This document shows positions 43,634-52,508 of a stretch of DNA of 52,508 nucleotides, piece by piece. Below the pieces are notes generated by a model. It made no database searches. It saw only the letters and a program-made list of their open reading frames with translations, and was not told the origin of the DNA. Each line of letters opens with the position of its first letter. Within the stretch, counting starts at the first letter, position 1. A program made the translations under genes and the position numbers. The DNA is from an uncultured Bacilli bacterium (lineage in GTDB: Bacteria; Bacillota_I; Bacilli_A; RFN20; CAG-826). The DNA is taken from NCBI GenBank assembly GCA_944363565.1, contig CALVUI010000005.1, positions 1 through 52,508 on the forward strand. The letters run 5' to 3'.

Positions 43634-43708
43634 GGCCCTGTGGTCAAGCGGCTAAGACGCAACCCTCTCAAGGTTGAATCCCGGGTTCGATTCCCGGCTG
43701 GGTCACCA
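43634..43708 (+). tRNA. tRNA-Glu (anticodon CTC)
   Basis: 75 nt. The acceptor GGCCCTG pairs with CTGGGTC (one T-T mismatch, one G-T), the anticodon stem CAACC/GGTTG holds loop CTCTCAA with anticodon CTC, the T arm is CCGGGTTCGATTCCCGG, and CCA is encoded. It decodes GAG. It marks the host/island boundary. Confidence 0.93.
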
Positions 43709-43721
43709 TATCGAAAGCATA

Positions 43722-43760
43722 GGTTTGATACGCTAGAAATAGCTAATCAAGCCTTTTTTT
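43722..43760 (+). terminator. Terminator downstream of tRNA-Glu
   Basis: GGTTTGAT pairs with ATCAAGCC, an inner GCTA/TAGC stem is closed by a GAAA tetraloop, and seven T follow. A second copy lies at 52079-52116. Confidence 0.85.
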
Positions 43761-43842
43761 GAGCCAAAATTAGCAAAACTTAGCAGTTATTTCACATAAA
43801 CTGAGCATAAGCAGCTTAACATCCTATCTTCTACCAGTGAAG

Positions 43843-43850
43843 TTTTAGTT
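43843..43850 (+). repeat. Target-site duplication, left
   Basis: TTTTAGTT, identical to 45226-45233, flanks the IS256-family element. An 8-bp duplication is typical for this family. Confidence 0.85.
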
Positions 43851-45225
43851 GGGACCACGGATGAATCTTGTGTAAGAAAGAAAACCGGCCATCACCACCC
43901 CTAGGGGTGGCCGGCCGGGCTTGAACCAAACGAGGTAGCCTTCTATCCTTGCGATTGTGACCAAAAGGAGAAAGCTACATGGACGATTTTAATGCAACCA
44001 AGCCCATCGGGGAAGGCCTTTCCCCCGCCATCGAGCTGATGAGGAGGGCCACGGAGGAGGCCGTCAACGAGGCGATGGAGGACCAGTTCCTCTCCTTCCT
44101 CGAGGACTGCCTTTCCGACGCGGAAACGCCTAGGAACGGCTATTACGCAAGAAAGGTGCTGACCACCGTCGGCGAGATAACCGTCCGGGTGCCGAGGGAC
44201 CGCCTCGGCCTCTTCAGGGAACGGGTCATAGGGAGATACAGGAGGAGGATCGACGGCCTCGATTGGGAGATCGGGAGGCTCTATTCCCAGGGGATGTCGG
44301 CCTCCGACATAAGCCAGTACCTATCCGCGAAGTCCGGCGTGGAGGTATCCGAAAAGCTCGTCCTCGCCATCGTGAGGGGAAGCTATGGGGAAGCCGAGAA
44401 ATTCAATTCGAGGGCGTTGCCGAGGTGCCCATTCGTCTACCTCGACGGCACGTGGCTCCCGGTGAGGAGGAGGTACGAAGGAGGGGACCGTTACGAGAAG
44501 GAATGCGTCATGGTGGCCCTCGGGGTCACCGAATCGGGGAGGAAGGAGGTCCTCGGCTTCTGGATGGTGCCGGAGGAATCATCGGCCGCATGGGAAAAAT
44601 GCCTGCGGAGCCTTAGGGAAAGAGGGGTCGGGGATCCCCTCCTGTTCGTCACCGACGGCCTCCAGGGGATGCCCGAGGCCATAAGGCGGGCATTCCCCGA
44701 TTCCCGCCACCAGAGGTGCCTCGTTCACGTCGGGAGGAACATGTCCTCGGGGGCGAGGAAGAAGGACCGGCAGGGGATATTGGACGACTTCAAGGAAGTG
44801 TATTCGGCCGAATCGGAAGCCGAAGCCAGGGCTCGGCTGGGCCTGTTCGTGGCCAAGTGGGCCAAGACGTACCCATCGTTCAGGAGATACCTCTCCGAGC
44901 CGGGGCTGTTCTCTTTCTATAGGTTCCCAAGGCCGATCAGGAAGGCTTTGTACACATCCAACGCGGTGGAGGCCTTCCACGCCTGCTTGAAGAGGAAGCT
45001 CAGGTCCAGGCTGGGCATGCATTCGATCAGGAACGGCTATTACCTCATATCCGTCGAGGCCGAGAGGTACAACCGATCCAGGCATTGCAAGGCGATAGCG
45101 GGCTTCGATGAGCTATCCGACGAAGAGCTGAAACAGGTTGGCATGTCGAGGTGAAAGGAGTTAAATGATGTGGCAAGGCGGAAGGCGCCTCGTCTTGGCG
45201 ATACACAAGATTCATCCGTGGTCTC
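43851..45225 (+). mobile_element. Complete IS256-family insertion sequence
   Basis: 1375 bp bounded by 24-bp terminal inverted repeats (43851-43874 and 45202-45225, one mismatch, core ACCACGGATGAATCTTGTGT) and an 8-bp target duplication. It holds one transposase gene. Its GC content matches the host chromosome and contrasts with the AT-rich DNA on its right. A palindrome CCACCCCTAGGGGTGG lies inside the left end. Confidence 0.92.
43979..45154 (+). CDS. IS256-family (mutator-type) transposase
   Basis: A 391-aa DDE transposase catalysing cut-and-paste or copy-out movement of the element. The catalytic triad reads as Asp156 (YLDGTW), Asp226 (FVTDGLQG) and Glu331 (SNAVEAFH). The conserved RCLVHVGRN lies between the second and third. 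The helix-turn-helix at the N-terminal third (MSASDISQYLSAKSG) binds the ends. Full length, so possibly active. AAAGGAG precedes the ATG. Confidence 0.95.
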   Translation: MDDFNATKPIGEGLSPAIELMRRATEEAVNEAMEDQFLSFLEDCLSDAETPRNGYYARKVLTTVGEITVRVPRDRLGLFRERVIGRYRRRIDGLDWEIGRLYSQGMSASDISQYLSAKSGVEVSEKLVLAIVRGSYGEAEKFNSRALPRCPFVYLDGTWLPVRRRYEGGDRYEKECVMVALGVTESGRKEVLGFWMVPEESSAAWEKCLRSLRERGVGDPLLFVTDGLQGMPEAIRRAFPDSRHQRCLVHVGRNMSSGARKKDRQGILDDFKEVYSAESEAEARARLGLFVAKWAKTYPSFRRYLSEPGLFSFYRFPRPIRKALYTSNAVEAFHACLKRKLRSRLGMHSIRNGYYLISVEAERYNRSRHCKAIAGFDELSDEELKQVGMSR

Positions 45226-45233
45226 TTTTAGTT
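45226..45233 (+). repeat. Target-site duplication, right
   Basis: TTTTAGTT, the right copy of the 8-bp duplication made by the IS insertion. Confidence 0.85.
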
Positions 45234-45323
45234 CGTGATTTTGCACAAAAAACTTTTTATAGCACAATAAACTTTTTGTCCCACAAAAAATTTTTATCCT
45301 TTTTGACAAAAAATCCCGTCAAA
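45234..45323 (+). repeat. Left flanking direct repeat, part 2
   Basis: Continues the repeat interrupted at 43850 and matches 52206-52297 with few differences. It holds three tandem iterons. Confidence 0.8.
45244..45299 (+). repeat. Three tandem iterons (left array)
   Basis: Units 45244-45262, 45263-45281 and 45282-45299 share CACAAWAAACTTTTT followed by RTMB-type ends. They lie upstream of the XRE regulator promoter and could bind a regulator or recombinase. Confidence 0.65.
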
Positions 45324-45364
45324 TTCCTAAAGGAATAGTCAAAACTATATAAAAGTGATATACT
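45323..45364 (+). promoter_or_regulatory. Palindromic operator and promoter of the defence operon
   Basis: ATTCCTAAAGGAAT (45323-45336) is a perfect inverted repeat. TGA-TATACT (45356-45364) is an extended -10. The arrangement resembles control-protein operators of restriction-modification systems, where the XRE regulator binds at its own promoter. Confidence 0.5.
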
Positions 45365-45386: not shown

Positions 45387-45578
45387 ATGACATATGCAGA
45401 AGGGATAAAACTTTTAAGAAAGAAGATGTTGATTTCCCAAAAAGAGTTAGCTGAAAAACTTGGAGTTTCTTTTGTAAGCGTAAATCGTTGGGAAAATAAT
45501 AAATATCAGCCGACCATAAAAGTTAAAAGAAAACTTAAAAAGTATTTTGTCATGGTTGGCATAGTCGTGGAGGATTGA
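45387..45578 (+). CDS. XRE-family transcriptional regulator (C-protein-like)
   Basis: A 63-aa helix-turn-helix protein: ISQKELAEKLGVSFVSVNRWENNKYQPT is a typical Cro/C1 HTH covering residues 17-44. Size and position at the head of a methyltransferase operon resemble the controller proteins that time restriction-modification expression. GTGAGGT lies 7 nt before the ATG. The palindrome at 45323-45336 is a candidate binding site. Confidence 0.85.
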   Translation: MTYAEGIKLLRKKMLISQKELAEKLGVSFVSVNRWENNKYQPTIKVKRKLKKYFVMVGIVVED

Positions 45579-45583
45579 ATGTT

Positions 45584-46114
45584 ATGGGTGAAAGAACAAA
45601 ATCTGAAAATACTTTATCTAAATTCAATCTCTTGGTACTTTTTGAGCAATTAATTTCTAAAAGTGGTTTTTTATTGGTCAATTATAAAGACATTAATGAC
45701 AAACTAGAGAATTTCCATTCTTTAGTAATAGAGAAAGACAAAAGGCGATTCGAAATAATCTTCAACATTAGAAATATTAGTGATGCTTATTTACCTAATA
45801 GACCTGAGATTAAACGAAGGCAGGTAGGAAGATTGGTTTTTGATGAGTTGCCTTCGAATCAAAAGAATCGCGCAGTAATGCTCCTCGGATTAAAAATTAT
45901 TAATGGTGAACCTGTACTTGTTTGTTGGAATCCGTTTTATTTTGTTGGTCACGCCACTAACAGGTCTTGTTATGTTGCACAATCCAGCATGGAAAAAGCC
46001 TTACAGTGTGGGCTTTATGTAGGAGATGATTGCAAAACAAGAGTCTATGCTTGTTTTGGCTCAAACTTTAATAGACTTTTACAACTATTCGTTGAAGAAA
46101 ACGCTTTGGAGTAA
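45584..46114 (+). CDS. Unrecognised protein of the GHKL/Z1 restriction-like operon
   Basis: 176 aa, function unknown. No signal peptide or membrane span. The middle has a dense run, RPEIKRRQVGRLVFDELP then AVMLLGLKIINGEPVLVCWNPF, HATNRSCYVAQSSMEKAL and a C-terminal TRVYACFGSNFNRLLQLFVEEN. It reads as a compact beta-rich domain. No PD-(D/E)XK, HNH or GIY-YIG motif is visible. Position between regulator and methyltransferase suggests DNA recognition or a second nuclease. ATG 45584 is chosen because GGAGG lies 10 nt upstream. A TTG at 45575 is too close to it. Confidence 0.6.
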   Translation: MGERTKSENTLSKFNLLVLFEQLISKSGFLLVNYKDINDKLENFHSLVIEKDKRRFEIIFNIRNISDAYLPNRPEIKRRQVGRLVFDELPSNQKNRAVMLLGLKIINGEPVLVCWNPFYFVGHATNRSCYVAQSSMEKALQCGLYVGDDCKTRVYACFGSNFNRLLQLFVEENALE

Positions 46115-46115
46115 T

Positions 46116-47345
46116 ATGAGTAAAATATTAAGTAAGAAATATACATACATTGATTTATTCGCAGGTATAGGTGGCTTTAGACTTGCTATGGATGAGTATT
46201 CTGATCATAACGCAGTTTGTCTATATGCTTCTGAGATTGATGAAGCGGCTCAAAAAACTTATGAATTGAACTTTAATCAAAAGCCACTTGGCGATATTAG
46301 AAAAATCAATCCAATCGAAATGGGTTATGACGCGCCAGATGTTGTTTGTGGTGGGTTCCCGTGTCAAACATTTTCTAAAGGCGGATATCAAGCTGGATTT
46401 AAAGACTCTAGAGGAACGCTTTTTAGAGAAATAATTAGAATAATCGAATCTTATCAAGAAAATTATAGGCCTAAAATTTTAATTTTAGAAAATGTTCAAA
46501 ACTTAGTCAGTCATGATAACGGAGAAACTTGGAAGACCATTCATCATGAAATATCGGAAGCAGGTTACAATGTAGTTCCAAAACCTATTGTATTAGCTCC
46601 AAAAGATGTCGGAATACCGCAACTTAGAAATAGGGCCATAATTTTGGCTGTTAGAAAAGATATTTATTCAAAACCGATTGATTTATCTTTTGATAGAGTA
46701 AAGCAAAACACATTGTCTATCAAAAGCATTATAGATGACACAATCACACCAAATCAGAAGAAACAATATAAAATTAGTAAGGAACAATTTGACATATTAA
46801 AATGTTGGGATGAATTCATTCATATCATTCCAAAGGATAAAAGAATTATTGGTTTTCCAATATGGACTGACGAATTTGGAAGGAGATATAACATCTCACA
46901 TTTTCCGGTGTGGAAACAATATATCATAAATAAAAACAGAGATTTGTATAAGACATACAAATTGGACATTGATGAGTGGATGAAAAAATGGAAGATTAGA
47001 GAATCCATGACAGCAACTAATAGAAAATTTGAATGGCAAGCTGGTAAAGATATTAACAGTGTTTTTGATGGGATTATTCAATTTAGAACAAGTGGCGTAA
47101 GAGTCAAAAGACCAACTGAGTCACCGGCCTTAGTCGCTATGGATCATCGCCCGATTTATGGTCCTGAAAAACGATTCTTTACTCCTTCTGAGGCTCTAAA
47201 ATTGCAGAGCTTTCCAGCGGATTATAAATTTGATGAAAAAGAAAAAGAAATATTTAAACAGTTAGGAAATGCAGTGAATGCAAAGGTAATCAAAGTTGCG
47301 TTTGAGTCATTTATTAATTATTTAAAAAAAAGGGTGAGGGAATAG
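46116..47345 (+). CDS. DNA (cytosine-5) methyltransferase
   Basis: A 409-aa SAM-dependent enzyme making 5-methylcytosine in a specific DNA site. Motif I is FAGIGGF (15-21), the catalytic motif IV is P82-C83-Q84, motif VI is E125-N126-V127, motif VIII is QLRNRAIILAV, and motifs IX-X end with LGNAVN. The target-recognition region (about 240-340) does not reveal the site. The start at 46116 follows the previous stop by one base with GGAG upstream. The longer frame to 46026 overlaps that gene. It is the modification partner of the downstream nuclease/ATPase genes. Confidence 0.94.
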   Translation: MSKILSKKYTYIDLFAGIGGFRLAMDEYSDHNAVCLYASEIDEAAQKTYELNFNQKPLGDIRKINPIEMGYDAPDVVCGGFPCQTFSKGGYQAGFKDSRGTLFREIIRIIESYQENYRPKILILENVQNLVSHDNGETWKTIHHEISEAGYNVVPKPIVLAPKDVGIPQLRNRAIILAVRKDIYSKPIDLSFDRVKQNTLSIKSIIDDTITPNQKKQYKISKEQFDILKCWDEFIHIIPKDKRIIGFPIWTDEFGRRYNISHFPVWKQYIINKNRDLYKTYKLDIDEWMKKWKIRESMTATNRKFEWQAGKDINSVFDGIIQFRTSGVRVKRPTESPALVAMDHRPIYGPEKRFFTPSEALKLQSFPADYKFDEKEKEIFKQLGNAVNAKVIKVAFESFINYLKKRVRE

Positions 47346-47348
47346 GAT

Positions 47349-48905
47349 ATGGAAAAAACAACTAAAGCGTTTGATGTAACTGCTGAATCTGGAATCATCG
47401 CTATTTGGCAGAGAGAAAAATTCAAGTTAGACCGCGTCTTTTCAGAATTTGTAGATAATTCTTTGCAGAGTTATCTCGATCATAAAGATACTTTAGATAG
47501 GCTTCCAGATGGTAAAAAGTGTTTTGTTCAAATTATTTGGAATGCAGATAAAATTGTTATCACAGATAACGCTTTTGGCATGAATGAGGAGGAATTTGCT
47601 AGAGCTTTAAAGCCTAAAGCCACAAATCCTAACGCACTTAGAAACAATCAATTAAGTGTATATGGACTTGGACTCAAATATGCATCTGTTTATCTAGGCA
47701 ATCATTATTCAATTTCTTCTACTAGATATGGTTCGACAATTCATTATTATGCTGAGGTAGACGTTCCTGAATTCGAAAAAAACAATCCAAAGAATGTAGA
47801 TGCAATTGTTTCTGATACTTTCCCTGAAAAGCATGAAACAATTTTGGAAATTACTTCTATAAGAATTAAAAGAACTCCAGACAAAGAAAGAGATCTTCGA
47901 GAGAAACTTGGCATTATTTACAATCACTACATTAATAGTGGCGACTTGTCAATTTCTATAAATGGTATACCAGTTTCATATGTTAGGCCGCAATTAAGAC
48001 CAAAAGAAGAGGGTGGCGTGTATTTTGAAAAGTTCGAAGATAGTTTTACTGTAGGTGATAAAAAATATGAATTTAGTGGCTGGATGGGGCTTCTTAACAG
48101 AGGTAATCAAGCTATCACTGGTATCAATTTGATGCAAGCAAAACGTTGTATAGAACTTGGTTATAAGCCAAAAAAGTTTTTTGGTACTGGCAACTCATTT
48201 GAAAATTCAAGAGTTGTCGGCGAAATAGTCTTTAATGGCGAAAACTATGTTCTTTCTTTCAATAAAGATGGATTTGTTTGGGCAGATGATGGCGCAGAAG
48301 ATGTTTTTATTGAAAAATTAATTAATATTCCGCAAGTTAAATATATTAAGAGAATGGCTCATGAGTTAACTTACACAGACGACGATGACAAAACAAAGAA
48401 GAAAACTCAAAACATTTTCAAAAACAACTCTTCAATTGTATTGACGCCTCCGACTGTTACAAAGGAGAAGAAAGAAAAAAAGGTTGAAAAACCAAACGAT
48501 ACAAAGATTGAGTCAGAAGAGCCAAAACAAACCACAATTGAAGTTCATAAAAAAGAGCAAATTGAGGTCGAAACAAAAAAAGATGGCTATGACAGATATT
48601 CTGTTATGGTTAATGGTAAAAACGCCACTCTTTGTGTTGAAATTCAACAAGGAAATGGAACTGAAGATTGGATTAAGCTTGAAAAATACGAAGATGGTTA
48701 TCTTTTAAAGATAAATACAGGTAATAATTTTATCGGCGAGAATTTTAATACTCAAACTTCAAAAGCAGCTTCAAATGCAATCGCTATTGTTTTGGCGACC
48801 AGCATGCTAAAAGCACAAAATTCTGGTCTTAAATTAAGTGAAGCAATGCTTCTATTAAATTCTATGAACGAGATTATGGGAAAACCGAAAGATGGAGATC
48901 AATAA
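47349..48905 (+). CDS. MutL/MORC-like GHKL ATPase
   Basis: 518 aa. The N-terminal Bergerat-fold ATPase has the N box Glu33-F-V-Asp36-Asn37, G1 box D73-N-A-F-G77-M and G2 box Y105-G-L-G-L-K110. A transducer-like domain follows (about 180-330), then a Lys/Glu-rich linker (about 355-410) and a C-terminal domain (about 410-518). Related S5/GHKL ATPases in restriction-like operons were linked to the origin of eukaryotic MORC proteins by Iyer, Abhiman and Aravind. It probably forms an ATP-dependent clamp on DNA. Its end overlaps the Z1 gene by 14 bp. Confidence 0.85.
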   Translation: MEKTTKAFDVTAESGIIAIWQREKFKLDRVFSEFVDNSLQSYLDHKDTLDRLPDGKKCFVQIIWNADKIVITDNAFGMNEEEFARALKPKATNPNALRNNQLSVYGLGLKYASVYLGNHYSISSTRYGSTIHYYAEVDVPEFEKNNPKNVDAIVSDTFPEKHETILEITSIRIKRTPDKERDLREKLGIIYNHYINSGDLSISINGIPVSYVRPQLRPKEEGGVYFEKFEDSFTVGDKKYEFSGWMGLLNRGNQAITGINLMQAKRCIELGYKPKKFFGTGNSFENSRVVGEIVFNGENYVLSFNKDGFVWADDGAEDVFIEKLINIPQVKYIKRMAHELTYTDDDDKTKKKTQNIFKNNSSIVLTPPTVTKEKKEKKVEKPNDTKIESEEPKQTTIEVHKKEQIEVETKKDGYDRYSVMVNGKNATLCVEIQQGNGTEDWIKLEKYEDGYLLKINTGNNFIGENFNTQTSKAASNAIAIVLATSMLKAQNSGLKLSEAMLLLNSMNEIMGKPKDGDQ

Positions 48906-51075
48906 CAAATTAATTGTAACCGAAAGTAGATCGACTGAAGTTTTGGATTCTATAGACAATCCAAATTTTAGTGGTTTTTTCATACAAAAATTTAGAGAAA
49001 AAATGCTAGAAGAAGAGCCAGCCGATACTGTTGATCATATACTTGCAAATTCATATCAATCGATTGGGCTATTTAAAAATCCAAAAAGCGATATCGTTCA
49101 AAAGCCACTAAAAATGCTCTGCTTAGGTAAGGTCCAATGTGGTAAAACATCTTTCTTTTTAGGATCTATCGCACTTGCTTTTGATAATGGATATGACATC
49201 GCTTACGTTTTAGGCGGAACCAAACTTAAATTAAAGAAACAAAACCTAGGACGTATTATTGAATCATTTGATAATAACGAGCGAATCAAAATTTTTGATG
49301 TAAATAGTGGGTTTGACGAAGACATTCGCAAGTTAATAAGCCAGAATTATAAAATAATTTTAGTCATCCTTAAAAATGCAGCCGAAAACACTAATTTGGG
49401 TAAATTAAAGGAGTTTTCTGAAACTTATAGAGACATACCTTCTGTCATTGTTGATGATGAAGGAGATGAGTTCACTCCAGGAGCCGAAAAGGCAAAAAAG
49501 AAGAACAATAAAGCTGGAAGAACTCATGACAAAATTGTCGATATTATTTCTTCATTTAATATCTGCACATTTCTTTCGGTTACTGCCACACCTCAAGCCA
49601 ATTTGCTAATATCTACCTTTGATGGAGTTTCGCCGGATAGGCTTGTTTTGGTAAGACCAGGCAATGGATATACTGGAGGCCACGCATTTTTTGATACTTC
49701 TGACAACCCTCATGTAGTTGAAATTGAAGATAAAGACGATTTTATTGACTCAATTCCTTCTTCATTCAAAGAAGCACTTTATTTCTTTATTTTTTCTTGT
49801 GCTTTAAAAAGATGCGGTGGTGATATTAAGCCCTTTTCCATGCTTGTTCATCCATCATCATTTAACACAATTCAAGATATTGTCGCTGACAGAGTCAAAA
49901 AGTTTATTAATTTCACCATAAAGCCTTCAATTGAAGATAAAAATAGCATCGCTTTTGATGACTTATGCGAAAGTATTAAGAACTCATATGAGACATATAT
50001 TAAAGACAACAGAAAATGTAATTATTCTCTGAAAGAGATTAATGAACAATTATCTGATGTAGTTGCGAACCTTGATATACAAACAATAAATTATAGCAAC
50101 CCTGATTTAGGTTCCGAGGAGGATCTGCCTTTATATAAAATTAAGGTAGGCGGTAACATGCTTGGAAGGGGCTTAACAATCGATAGATTGATTGTGAGTT
50201 ACATTTATAGAGATTCAAAAGAAGCGCAAGTTGATACGATGTATCAAAGATGCAGATGGTTTGGCTATAAATCAAGATACTTCGATGTTTGCAAGGTATA
50301 TATGACAAAAGAATTAAGAGACAAGTTTATTTCTATTGTTTCTAATGAAGATCATATGTGGGGCGCTCTTGAAGCATTTTTGAAATCAAATATAAATATT
50401 AAGAAGTTTAAGAGAGTGTTTTTGCTTGAAAACGATCATTTAGTTTTAACAAGAAGAACCGTAGCTAATACTGTTGTATTGAAAGTTATTTCTTCTGGCA
50501 ACAAACCTGATGAATGTATTGATATCGGCAAAAACGAAAGAGAAAACAACAGGAAAGTGTATATTTCTTTTGCCAAAAAGCATGAGAAAGATGGAACATA
50601 TGTTGATTTTGATAATTCTGTGAATCATAGACAAAGACATTTACTTGTTAATATGAAATTTACTGAAGCATATGATGAGTTCCTTTCTCAATTGCATTAT
50701 GGCTATGGAAGTCCATTTTCTGTGTCCGTATTTCAGACATTGGTAGAAAAAATCAAAAATAATGAACGAGAGGATAAAATACTCATTATGTTCATGAGAT
50801 ATGGAGTAGGTGAACACCGTTCTTCAAATGATGGAGTAACGATATCCAGATTATTTCAAGGTCGTAATGATGGTACAAATTTCAAGGGAGATAGATACCC
50901 TGAAGATGTGAATGGAAATACTTACCAAAACATCCCATTTATTCAAATTCACATGGTTGATCCAGATAATGATCTGCCTCTTTTAGATAACTCTATACCT
51001 TTGATTTCTTACAATAGTCCATATACTGCATCTGTCATAAAGATGGTAACAGGAGATAATATTTATGAAGACTGA
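48892..51075 (+). CDS. Z1-domain superfamily II ATPase
   Basis: 727 aa. Walker A is G79-KVQC-GKT-S87, Walker B VIVD188-D189-E190, motif III TATP (231-234). The Z1-type second lobe has GGNMLGRGLTIDRLIVSY (from about 420) and YQRCRWFGYKSRY (from about 454) with arginine-finger-like residues. Z1 proteins are found beside GHKL ATPases and DNA methylases, and are thought to act as DNA motors or remodellers in defence. Full length with no frameshift. It overlaps both neighbours. Confidence 0.9.
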   Translation: MEINNKLIVTESRSTEVLDSIDNPNFSGFFIQKFREKMLEEEPADTVDHILANSYQSIGLFKNPKSDIVQKPLKMLCLGKVQCGKTSFFLGSIALAFDNGYDIAYVLGGTKLKLKKQNLGRIIESFDNNERIKIFDVNSGFDEDIRKLISQNYKIILVILKNAAENTNLGKLKEFSETYRDIPSVIVDDEGDEFTPGAEKAKKKNNKAGRTHDKIVDIISSFNICTFLSVTATPQANLLISTFDGVSPDRLVLVRPGNGYTGGHAFFDTSDNPHVVEIEDKDDFIDSIPSSFKEALYFFIFSCALKRCGGDIKPFSMLVHPSSFNTIQDIVADRVKKFINFTIKPSIEDKNSIAFDDLCESIKNSYETYIKDNRKCNYSLKEINEQLSDVVANLDIQTINYSNPDLGSEEDLPLYKIKVGGNMLGRGLTIDRLIVSYIYRDSKEAQVDTMYQRCRWFGYKSRYFDVCKVYMTKELRDKFISIVSNEDHMWGALEAFLKSNINIKKFKRVFLLENDHLVLTRRTVANTVVLKVISSGNKPDECIDIGKNERENNRKVYISFAKKHEKDGTYVDFDNSVNHRQRHLLVNMKFTEAYDEFLSQLHYGYGSPFSVSVFQTLVEKIKNNEREDKILIMFMRYGVGEHRSSNDGVTISRLFQGRNDGTNFKGDRYPEDVNGNTYQNIPFIQIHMVDPDNDLPLLDNSIPLISYNSPYTASVIKMVTGDNIYED

Positions 51076-52003
51076 ATTTAAGTACATTGCTGAACTCAAA
51101 GAAGAAGAGTTTGAAACACAAACAGTTCTTCCATTCACAAATGAAGAAGGCAGACCATGTGTTTTAATTAGAAATGCTATCGAAAAACAAAACGTTTTGA
51201 GTGGAGCAACTGATAATCTAGAATACAGATTAAATACCGTAGTAACACATAACGAAAAAATGTATTTTTTCCATATTGTGTCTTGCACTAAAGATGATGG
51301 CTATTCGAAAGAACAATTTAGTATTGCTTACACATATTTGTTCAAATCCATCAAGGAGCCAAAATCTGATTTTGAGATTGGCTCTCTAATAAATTCACTT
51401 GAACAATTATTTAAAATTACTCCTGAAAAAGATAGATTTAAGTTGCATCTTGGAGTTTATGGGGAGCTGTTGTTTCTTAACTATATGCTCGAACACGGTT
51501 GTTCAGATATCATTTCGAGCTATCACTCAAATTTCTTTTCTAAACACGATATCGAAATCGATAGATTAAATAGAATTGAGATTAAAACAACCGTAGGGGG
51601 AAAAAGGATACATCATTTTTCGCACGATCAAATATTTAGAAAAGACGTAAATGTTTATGTTGTGTCCAATATTTTAGAAGAATCTGAAGAAGGCGTTTCC
51701 CTTAACGAATTGTTTGAAAAAGTAATATCAAAAATAATTAATGCAAAAGCGTTATTGTGGTTCGGGCAACTAAAAGGTTTTTGTGGAATCTCGTCATCAA
51801 ATCCTGGACCATCCTTCTCTTACGGTAAAGCTATAAGTGATTTGCGCGTTTTTAACTCAAAAGCACTCCCACATTTAGAAGTAGAAGATACAAAAGGCAT
51901 TTCAAACATATCCTATGATGTTGATTGTGCTACTGCAGAGGAAGAAAACACCGATGATTTTGTAGCCTTTATAAATAAGTTGATAGAGCCAAAACGCGAA
52001 TAA
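51065..52003 (+). CDS. DUF4420 PD-(D/E)XK-type nuclease
   Basis: 312 aa. The core reads GVYGE134LLFL, KHD162IEI and IE172IK174TT, the PD-(D/E)XK metal site with an accessory Glu, as in the DUF4420 family. The N-terminal 120 residues and C-terminal part (VFNSKALPHLEV) are not assigned. It is likely the DNA-cutting subunit of the operon. It overlaps the Z1 gene by 11 bp. The terminator at 52079 probably ends the operon. Confidence 0.82.
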   Translation: MKTEFKYIAELKEEEFETQTVLPFTNEEGRPCVLIRNAIEKQNVLSGATDNLEYRLNTVVTHNEKMYFFHIVSCTKDDGYSKEQFSIAYTYLFKSIKEPKSDFEIGSLINSLEQLFKITPEKDRFKLHLGVYGELLFLNYMLEHGCSDIISSYHSNFFSKHDIEIDRLNRIEIKTTVGGKRIHHFSHDQIFRKDVNVYVVSNILEESEEGVSLNELFEKVISKIINAKALLWFGQLKGFCGISSSNPGPSFSYGKAISDLRVFNSKALPHLEVEDTKGISNISYDVDCATAEEENTDDFVAFINKLIEPKRE

Positions 52004-52078
52004 TTGAGTGTTTGAATCACAATAAATTTGATTTGTTAAGGCGTTTAAGGCGTACAGTAAGGACATATTGAAAGCAAT

Positions 52079-52116
52079 GGTTTGATACGCTAGAAATAGC
52101 TAATCAAGCCTTTTTT
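52079..52116 (+). terminator. Terminator of the defence operon
   Basis: The same hairpin as at 43722: GGTTTGAT/ATCAAGCC, inner GCTA-GAAA-TAGC, followed by six T. Confidence 0.85.
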
Positions 52117-52216
52117 GTGCCAAAATTAGCCAAATTTAGCATTTTTTTAACATTAATTGAGCATAATTCTATTAACGTCCTATTCTCTAACAACGAAGTT
52201 TTACCTCGTGATTTTG

Positions 52217-52273
52217 CACTAAAAACTTTTTATAGCACAATAAACTTTTTGTCTCACAAAAAACTTTTTATCC
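52217..52273 (+). repeat. Three tandem iterons (right array)
   Basis: Units 52217-52235, 52236-52254 and 52255-52273, each 19 bp, sharing the AAACTTTTT core with the left array. Confidence 0.65.
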
Positions 52274-52431
52274 TTTTTGAGAAAAAATCTCGTCAAAGTT
52301 CTACGAAAATATCGAATTTAACCTTGTTTATGTTAAAGTGCTGATAACCATTTGAGGTGTTAATCACGGAATTAATTTTGCATATGTAAATGACAAGTTC
52401 ATACGGAAGTTTTTGTCTGCACTCCATTTCC

Positions 52432-52508
52432 GGGAGTAACCACAATCTTGTGTAAATGACGACGGAGGGGTCATTCCCTCCTCAGACCCCTAGGGGTCGG
52501 CCGGCCGC
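52432..52508 (+). mobile_element. Left end of a second IS256-like element, cut by the window
   Basis: AATCTTGTGTAA and the downstream CCCCTAGGGGT plus GGCCGGCCG match the left end of the complete IS at 43851. The sequence between differs, so this is a related but distinct element. Composition returns to GC-rich. The boundary at GGGAGTAACC is approximate. Confidence 0.6.

What the first reader, a model, noticed from the sequence alone, without database searches (positions are those of the whole stretch)
45387..52003. Six-gene AT-rich defence-like operon: XRE, unknown, m5C methylase, GHKL ATPase, Z1 ATPase, DUF4420 nuclease
All genes overlap or abut and are co-directional. Motifs are intact: PCQ methylase, Bergerat ATPase, Walker A/B with TATP, and PD-(D/E)XK. 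The combination matches the GHKL/MutL-Z1 restriction-like systems described by comparative genomics (Iyer, Abhiman and Aravind). Coupling of a MORC-like clamp and a Z1 motor with a modification methylase implies ATP-driven, modification-sensitive DNA attack rather than a simple type II enzyme. The unknown second gene replaces or supplements partners such as AIPR.
Basis: partly seen in the sequence, partly recalled or inferred. Interest (0 to 1): 0.85.

Follow-up and report, generated by a model that had tools for sequence, protein, structure and literature searches.

The report
MORC–Z1 ATP-dependent restriction-modification operon
A small-genome bacterium carries a horizontally acquired six-gene cassette that very probably marks its own DNA with methyl groups and uses two ATP-burning machines plus a nuclease to destroy unmarked DNA; the kind was predicted in 2008, and the supposedly unknown second gene belongs to a named family that elsewhere is fused to restriction nucleases.

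Summary
In detail: six intact, co-directional ORFs (45387-52003), 33% GC in a 56.5% GC contig. They are HTH_3, MTaX1 (PF20296), m5C methylase, MORC-type GHKL ATPase, Z1-type SF2 ATPase and DUF4420 PD-(D/E)XK nuclease. Dcm-MORC-Z1-DUF4420 recurs across Bacilli and on an actinobacterial plasmid. It matches the third MORC operon type of Iyer, Abhiman and Aravind (2008), including the MORC motif and, but for one residue, the Z1 motif.

Two corrections. Gene 2 is not unknown: it is a stand-alone MTaX1 domain, found elsewhere as the N-terminus of PD-(D/E)XK-like proteins beside Dcm and of a GmrSD-type protein. Its model resembles PD-(D/E)XK folds but lacks conserved catalytic residues, so it is probably a DNA reader. 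It does not replace AIPR: three relatives have AIPR directly upstream of it, while this locus has an HTH gene there.

The system is not MZA (it fails the NCBIfam Mza cut-offs); MZA-like operons with a long Z1 protein form a separate class in the same phylum. Best reading: an ATP-dependent, methylation-controlled restriction system working like CglI/NgoAVII. Defence is inferred. New member of a known kind.

The parts
45387..45578 (+). Gene 1: 63-aa Cro/C1-type HTH protein, probable autoregulator; TAGTCA-17-TATACT promoter-like site at 45336-45364 (extended TG) lies just upstream
   Evidence: HTH_3 47.9 bits against cut-off 23; an HTH gene is in the same place in L041 and L010; promoter-like sites are no more frequent than in shuffles
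45575..46114 (+). Gene 2: stand-alone MTaX1 (methylase-associated X1), proposed DNA reader
   Evidence: PF20296 35.7 bits against 25; orthologous position before Dcm in 6 other loci; invariant R81, Q83, N129 in 12 sequences; model nearest to PD-(D/E)XK folds
46026..47345 (+). Gene 3: m5C DNA methyltransferase (likely start ATG 46116); motifs I 46152-46181, IV FPCQ 46356-46376, VI ENV 46482-46502, VIII 46620-46640, X 47259-47279
   Evidence: PF00145 244 bits, TIGR00675 219 bits against 100.65; motifs
47349..48905 (+). Gene 4: MORC-family GHKL-S5 ATPase; Bergerat motifs 47445-47471, 47565-47582, 47661-47684; MORC motif GINLMQAKRCI 48120-48152; candidate S5 lysine K306
   Evidence: HATPase_c_3 48.4 bits; MORC motif conserved in 15 homologues, K306 invariant; profile finds Topo VI-B, human MORC4 and MutL
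48892..51075 (+). Gene 5: SF2 ATPase with C-terminal Z1 domain; Walker A 49126-49155, Walker B 49444-49470, TATP 49576-49596, DTMYQRCRWFG 50233-50265
   Evidence: Z1 154 bits; motifs invariant in 14 homologues; homologous to the Z1 protein of an N. gonorrhoeae record, E 8e-23
51065..52003 (+). Gene 6: DUF4420 nuclease with PD-(D/E)XK C-domain (E134, D162, E172-x-K174, Q189)
   Evidence: PF14390 52.5 bits; catalytic residues invariant in 12 homologues; residues 121-306 of the model match DpnI, SPARDA effector, Hjc and EcoRV
43707..45329 (+). Left flanking repeat (43707-43847 and 45226-45329) starting at the 3' end of tRNA-Glu, split by an IS256-family element (about 43848-45225)
   Evidence: 84% and 91% identity to the right copy; 22-nt perfect inverted repeats 43853-43874 / 45202-45223; 8-bp target duplication TTTTAGTT; IS256 transposase
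52064..52303 (+). Right flanking repeat, uninterrupted copy

Best explanation
A mobile, ATP-dependent, 5-methylcytosine restriction-modification operon of the MORC + Z1 + RE-fold type. The Dcm enzyme methylates a sequence in the host DNA. MTaX1 (gene 2) reads target DNA and its methylation state and recruits the effector. The MORC dimer closes as an ATP-driven clamp around the DNA, the Z1 ATPase moves along it or remodels it, and the DUF4420 PD-(D/E)XK nuclease cuts, so that unmethylated incoming DNA is destroyed. The HTH protein probably regulates the operon. Shown here by sequence: the six families, intact catalytic motifs, conserved gene order, foreign composition. Inferred: complex formation, the order of steps, methyl-sensitivity, the role of MTaX1, and defence.
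For: Families and motifs. Dcm-MORC-Z1 in a row with a nuclease gene in other genomes and phyla. Match to the third MORC operon type, for which the authors proposed DNA looping and cutting tied to methylation. Z1 homology to the ATPases of CglI/NgoAVII-type systems, where the ATPase acts on unmethylated sites and is needed for cleavage (PMC4267653). X1 is fused to PD-(D/E)XK-like and GmrSD_N domains elsewhere and has no conserved catalytic centre of its own. Independent published prediction that MTaX1 discriminates modified DNA (PMC10853773). GC 33% against 56.5%, flanking repeats and IS.
Against: No experiment on any member of this short-Z1 class was found. X1 is absent (or undetected) in 10 of 17 short-Z1 loci, so it cannot be the only source of specificity in the class. 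Interaction between the proteins was not modelled. Fold assignments rest on models from three sequences and Z-scores below 8. The contig end hides what follows.
Confidence: 0.6

Rival explanations
1. Modification-dependent (type IV-like) or mixed system: X1 recognises a base modification on foreign DNA and licenses the MORC-Z1-DUF4420 effector, while Dcm marks self or regulates the operon.
For: [quoted passage not shown] in L105 X1 is fused to GmrSD_N, a domain of a modification-dependent enzyme family; the DUF4420 model's best match is DpnI, a methyl-dependent nuclease (Z 6.0).
Against: In all seven X1-bearing short-Z1 loci and in the two-gene pairs X1 lies directly beside a Dcm, as expected of a partner of self-methylation; the fold match to DpnI is tied with many ordinary type II enzymes.
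Confidence: 0.2
2. Silencing or exclusion without cutting as the main output: MORC and Z1 condense or strip foreign DNA (as eukaryotic MORCs compact DNA) and the nuclease is accessory.
For: Eukaryotic MORCs entrap and condense DNA (general knowledge, and the abstract of PMC8277788 listed); five of 17 short-Z1 loci lack an adjacent DUF4420.
Against: The nuclease residues are invariant in 12 homologues; HNH genes appear in the operon or next to it in several loci that lack DUF4420; nucleases are typical of the class.
Confidence: 0.08
3. Selfish addiction cassette: kept by post-segregational killing on loss of the methylase, with little value against phages.
For: Patchy distribution (Z1 in 8 of 61 close relatives); a degraded relative exists in L049; flanking IS and repeats.
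Against: Compatible with defence and not separable from it by sequence; the operon has more ATPase parts than addiction requires (judgement).
Confidence: 0.07

Closest known systems
Third MORC operon type of Iyer, Abhiman and Aravind 2008 (PMC2292703)
   Same: MORC GHKL-S5 protein with GhXhhpXXRhl, SFII/Z1 helicase with the DThhQXuRhFG-type motif, RE-fold neighbour, cytosine methylase
   Different: The window adds a stand-alone MTaX1 and an HTH gene; whether that exact set is drawn in their figure could not be seen (only legends are held; X1 is named there as an uncharacterised domain)
Putative defence system of Miller et al. 2022, type II (PMC9523054)
   Same: Core of Z1 protein, PD-(D/E)XK DUF protein and cytosine methylase; associated MORC and regulator
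   Different: Their type II includes AIPR and a Z1 protein of 925 aa; the window has 727 aa and no AIPR
MZA (MzaABCDE)
   Same: GHKL ATPase, Z1 protein, PD-(D/E)XK protein in one operon
   Different: Scores far below the NCBIfam Mza cut-offs: MzaB 20 of 850 bits, MzaC 128 of 1500, MzaD none; no AIPR
CglI / NgoAVII (m5C methylase, PLD-B3 nuclease, DEAD-Z1 ATPase; PMC4267653)
   Same: m5C methylase plus Z1-type ATPase plus separate nuclease; homologous Z1 ATPase
   Different: No MORC; the nuclease is of PLD type with a B3 recognition domain instead of DUF4420 and MTaX1
MTaX1-nuclease + Dcm two-gene pairs (L090, L091, L093, L094, L096, L098, L100)
   Same: MTaX1 next to an m5C methylase; homologous X1 domain
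   Different: X1 fused to its own PD-(D/E)XK-like domain; no ATPase genes in the pair

Membership tests
Third MORC operon type (Iyer 2008) | MORC S5 motif GhXhhpXXRhl | tested here: met
   GINLMQAKRCI at residues 258-268; conserved in homologues
Third MORC operon type (Iyer 2008) | SFII helicase with C-terminal DThhQXuRhFG motif | tested here: met
   DTMYQRCRWFG; one departure (C where a tiny residue is written; homologues have A)
Third MORC operon type (Iyer 2008) | Neighbouring RE-fold protein with E-D-ExK | tested here: met
   E134, D162, E172-x-K174 invariant in 12 sequences; fold matches
Third MORC operon type (Iyer 2008) | Frequent cytosine methylase neighbour | tested here: met
   Dcm-family enzyme with intact motifs
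MZA (MzaABCDE) | NCBIfam equivalog cut-offs for MzaB, MzaC, MzaD | tested here: not met
   20.4 of 850, 127.8 of 1500, no hit
MZA (MzaABCDE) | AIPR protein MzaE | tested here: not met
   No AIPR in the genome at E 0.001; genome 95% complete and the contig ends 505 bp downstream
Miller 2022 type II | Core genes Z1, PD-(D/E)XK DUF protein, cytosine methylase | tested here: met
   definition
Miller 2022 type II | AIPR protein | tested here: not met
   but present in the relatives L044, L045, L046
CglI / NgoAVII systems | Z1-type ATPase homologous to the N-protein | tested here: met
   tblastn E 8e-23 to the only Z1 place of an N. gonorrhoeae record; that this gene is N.NgoAVII is from general knowledge, the stretch is not annotated
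CglI / NgoAVII systems | PLD-type nuclease with B3 domain | tested here: not met
   The nuclease is DUF4420; no PLD or B3 match in any gene
MTaX1 (PF20296), gene 2 | Pfam gathering score | tested here: met
   35.7 bits against 25
PD-(D/E)XK nucleases, gene 2 | PD-(D/E)XK fold | tested here: inconclusive
   Most of the top ten second-look matches are of this class, Z up to 7.6; Foldseek alone gave no confident match
PD-(D/E)XK nucleases, gene 2 | Conserved catalytic D and (D/E)xK | tested here: not met
   Invariant residues among 12 X1 sequences are R81, Q83, N129 only
Anti-phage defence system | Protection against phage or foreign DNA | not testable with these tools
   needs the bench tests listed

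The most novel reading that the evidence does not exclude
MTaX1 is a catalytically dead PD-(D/E)XK-fold DNA reader shared, by fusion or as a separate subunit, among simple type II enzymes, GmrSD-type enzymes and the MORC-Z1 effector. In this operon it is the detachable subunit that couples Dcm methylation to a MORC clamp, so that a prokaryotic MORC is gated by DNA methylation through a separate reader, in parallel to eukaryotic MORCs and their chromatin readers.
Probability: 0.3. Interest if true: 0.65.

Novelty: new member of a known kind. Interest (0 to 1): 0.42.

Why it matters
Prokaryotic MORC-Z1 systems have been predicted since 2008, but no experimental study of one turned up in the papers held here. 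This operon supplies a compact set of parts in 6.6 kb, with a homologue at 58-68% identity in another family of the order (Dcm, MORC, Z1 and DUF4420; X1 45%). It also gives a testable assignment for the second gene, a detachable DNA reader. Resolving it would show how an ATP clamp of the MORC type is told which DNA to attack, a question that also bears on eukaryotic MORC proteins.

Tried and rejected
(1) Similar DNA on plasmids and relatives of X1 or of X1-nuclease proteins on plasmids: none. (2) Viral contigs for DUF4420, X1 and X1-nuclease proteins: no confirmed relative, so nothing shows the cassette to be phage-borne. (3) HNH proteins between Dcm and MORC in L067, L069, L070 and L071 looked X1-like (KNSG..NKRxQ), but the profile comparison gave probability 0.2% and an X1 HMM found nothing significant: not claimed. 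(4) The N-terminal extension of the L048 MORC looks X1-like (RIQVG), but several of 1000 shuffles score higher: a lead only. (5) A catalytic role for gene 2: no conserved acidic/lysine residues. (6) Sequence relatives of gene 2, its nuclease fusions or DUF4420 among solved structures: none significant. Foldseek alone found no confident match for either model; the fold statements rest on the second-look aligner with Z below 8. (7) RNA elements in the operon: none in Rfam. (8) Promoter and terminator scans gave counts no higher than shuffles. (9) Laying the whole genome in the Python box was not available. (10) Gao et al. 2020 and Krishnan et al. 2020 are not in the paper library, so statements on MZA rest on NCBIfam models and PMC9523054, those on MTaX1 on PMC10853773.
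Full report
Observation. The six ORFs are real and intact. Their domains exceed Pfam's curated cut-offs: HTH_3, MTaX1, DNA_methylase, HATPase_c_3, Z1 and DUF4420. Junctions overlap by 4, 14 and 11 nt or leave 1-3 nt, taking the methylase start at the ATG at 46116, which follows a GGAG and lies one base after the gene-2 stop. The island has 33% GC against 56.5% for window 1-43000. The window is a whole contig of a 1.26-Mb genome that is 95% complete, and it ends 505 bp after the last gene.

Which ATPases. Iyer, Abhiman and Aravind defined three MORC operon types. The third has an SFII helicase with a C-terminal DThhQXuRhFG motif and a neighbouring RE-fold protein, often with cytosine methylases; MORC proteins proper carry GhXhhpXXRhl in the S5 domain. 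The window has DTMYQRCRWFG and GINLMQAKRCI, and both regions are conserved across homologues. The profile of this MORC set finds topoisomerase VI-B, human MORC4 and MutL among solved structures. By the paper's own motif the protein is a MORC, not a paraMORC.

Gene order. Z1 was found in 49 of 392 genomes of the phylum and in 8 of 61 close relatives. Loci fall into two classes. Those with a Z1 protein of about 700-745 aa have a MORC gene immediately upstream in all 17 loci examined: window, L010, L041-L048, L067, L069-L072, the Rathayibacter plasmid L104 and the Hymenobacter plasmid L105 (Z1 protein 550 aa). DUF4420 adjoins Z1 in 12 of them. Those with a Z1 protein of about 840-940 aa are a different class; the one examined in detail, L052, reads MzaB-, MzaC-, MzaD-, MzaE-like plus Dcm with 350, 506, 96 and 323 bits, below NCBI's cut-offs. 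The window scores 20 and 128 bits for MzaB and MzaC and has no MzaD hit. It is therefore not MZA.

Gene 2. It belongs to PF20296, methylase-associated X1. X1 genes lie directly before Dcm in seven short-Z1 loci including the window. The family occurs in 17 of 392 genomes of the phylum. Most of the others are proteins of about 400 aa directly beside a Dcm, in which X1 is N-terminal and the C-terminal part carries invariant D270 and D278-L-K280, a PD-(D/E)XK-like signature. On the Hymenobacter plasmid X1 is N-terminal to GmrSD_N, a few genes from a Dcm-MORC-Z1 operon. The AlphaFold2 model of the window protein (pLDDT 78.6, pTM 0.77, three sequences) has PD-(D/E)XK-type nucleases as nearest neighbours: SPARDA effector Z 7.6, I-Ssp6803I 7.1, Hjc 6.3, EcoRV 4.0 (that the SPARDA effector is of this class is general knowledge). 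Z below 8 is not proof, but the ranking is consistent. The invariant residues of twelve X1 sequences are R81, Q83 and N129, not an acidic/lysine centre. The reading, an inference, is a non-catalytic DNA reader; [quoted passage not shown]

AIPR. None was found in this genome. In L044, L045 and L046 an AIPR protein of 698-722 aa (E 3e-27 to 1e-31) lies immediately upstream of X1, giving AIPR-X1-Dcm-MORC-Z1-DUF4420. In the window, L041 and L010 an HTH gene holds that place. X1 therefore coexists with AIPR and does not replace it.

Nuclease. DUF4420 has GE134-L, D162, E172-x-K174 and Q189 invariant in 12 sequences. In its model (pLDDT 79.2, pTM 0.61) residues about 121-306 match DpnI (Z 6.0), the SPARDA effector, Hjc and EcoRV, and the top 25 matches are all PD-(D/E)XK enzymes. 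The N-terminal part of about 110 residues has no assigned fold.

Mechanism. The closest biochemistry is CglI/NgoAVII: an m5C methylase, a DEAD-Z1 ATPase and a separate nuclease; the ATPase is triggered by unmethylated sites, and cleavage requires nucleotide hydrolysis (PMC4267653). The window Z1 protein is homologous to the only Z1 place in an N. gonorrhoeae record (E 8e-23) and to those of Dcm + PLD-nuclease + Z1 trios on plasmids. From this I infer: Dcm marks self; X1 reads the site; MORC clamps; Z1 moves; DUF4420 cuts. The parts are shown; their interaction, order and purpose are not.

Mobility. The island lies between two copies of a repeat of about 240 nt. The left one begins at the end of tRNA-Glu and is split by an IS256-family element with 22-nt inverted repeats and an 8-bp target duplication, TTTTAGTT. 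Related repeats follow tRNA-Leu, tRNA-Lys and tRNA-Gly genes in other genomes of the genus. The two copies differ from each other about as much as from those in relatives, so recombination between tRNA-associated repeats is a plausible route of entry, not shown.

Verdict. It is a new member of a kind predicted in 2008 and met again by Miller et al. in 2022. The added value is the identity and probable role of gene 2, its relation to AIPR, and the separation from MZA.

Noticed in passing
window 43707-43847 + 45226-45329 and 52064-52303; L125 3103-3348, L126 2796-2936, L128 1391-1469, L129 2264-2343: A ~240-nt element starting with a terminator-like hairpin (GGTTTGAT...ATCAAGCCTTTTTT) directly follows several tRNA genes in this genus; two imperfect copies flank the operon island. 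No Rfam match.
   Followed up: partly
window 43848-45225: IS256-family element inserted in the left copy of that repeat, with 22-nt inverted repeats and an 8-bp target duplication TTTTAGTT; another copy at 79% identity on contig C6.
   Followed up: yes
window 52435-52508: The contig end resembles the terminus of another IS256-like element (CAATCTTGTGTAA... CCCCTAGGGG.CGGCCGG), so the assembly probably broke inside an IS.
   Followed up: no
L067 12556-13620, L069 5813-6883, L070 6039-7118, L071 12670-13770: MORC-Z1 operons in TGA-recoded mycoplasma-like genomes have an HNH protein of 355-367 aa between Dcm and MORC and, in some, a second HNH gene after Z1, in place of DUF4420.
   Followed up: partly
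L105 9555-11117: MTaX1 (E 1.6e-28) fused to GmrSD_N on a Hymenobacter plasmid, a few genes from a Dcm-MORC-Z1 operon.
   Followed up: partly
L048 6552-8609: A MORC with an N-terminal extension that looks weakly MTaX1-like (RIQVG); a possible X1-MORC fusion, statistically inconclusive.
   Followed up: partly
L049 (G329:C8:1-13000): A stop-interrupted Z1 gene with a DUF4420 neighbour in the same family: an apparently decaying relative of the operon.
   Followed up: no
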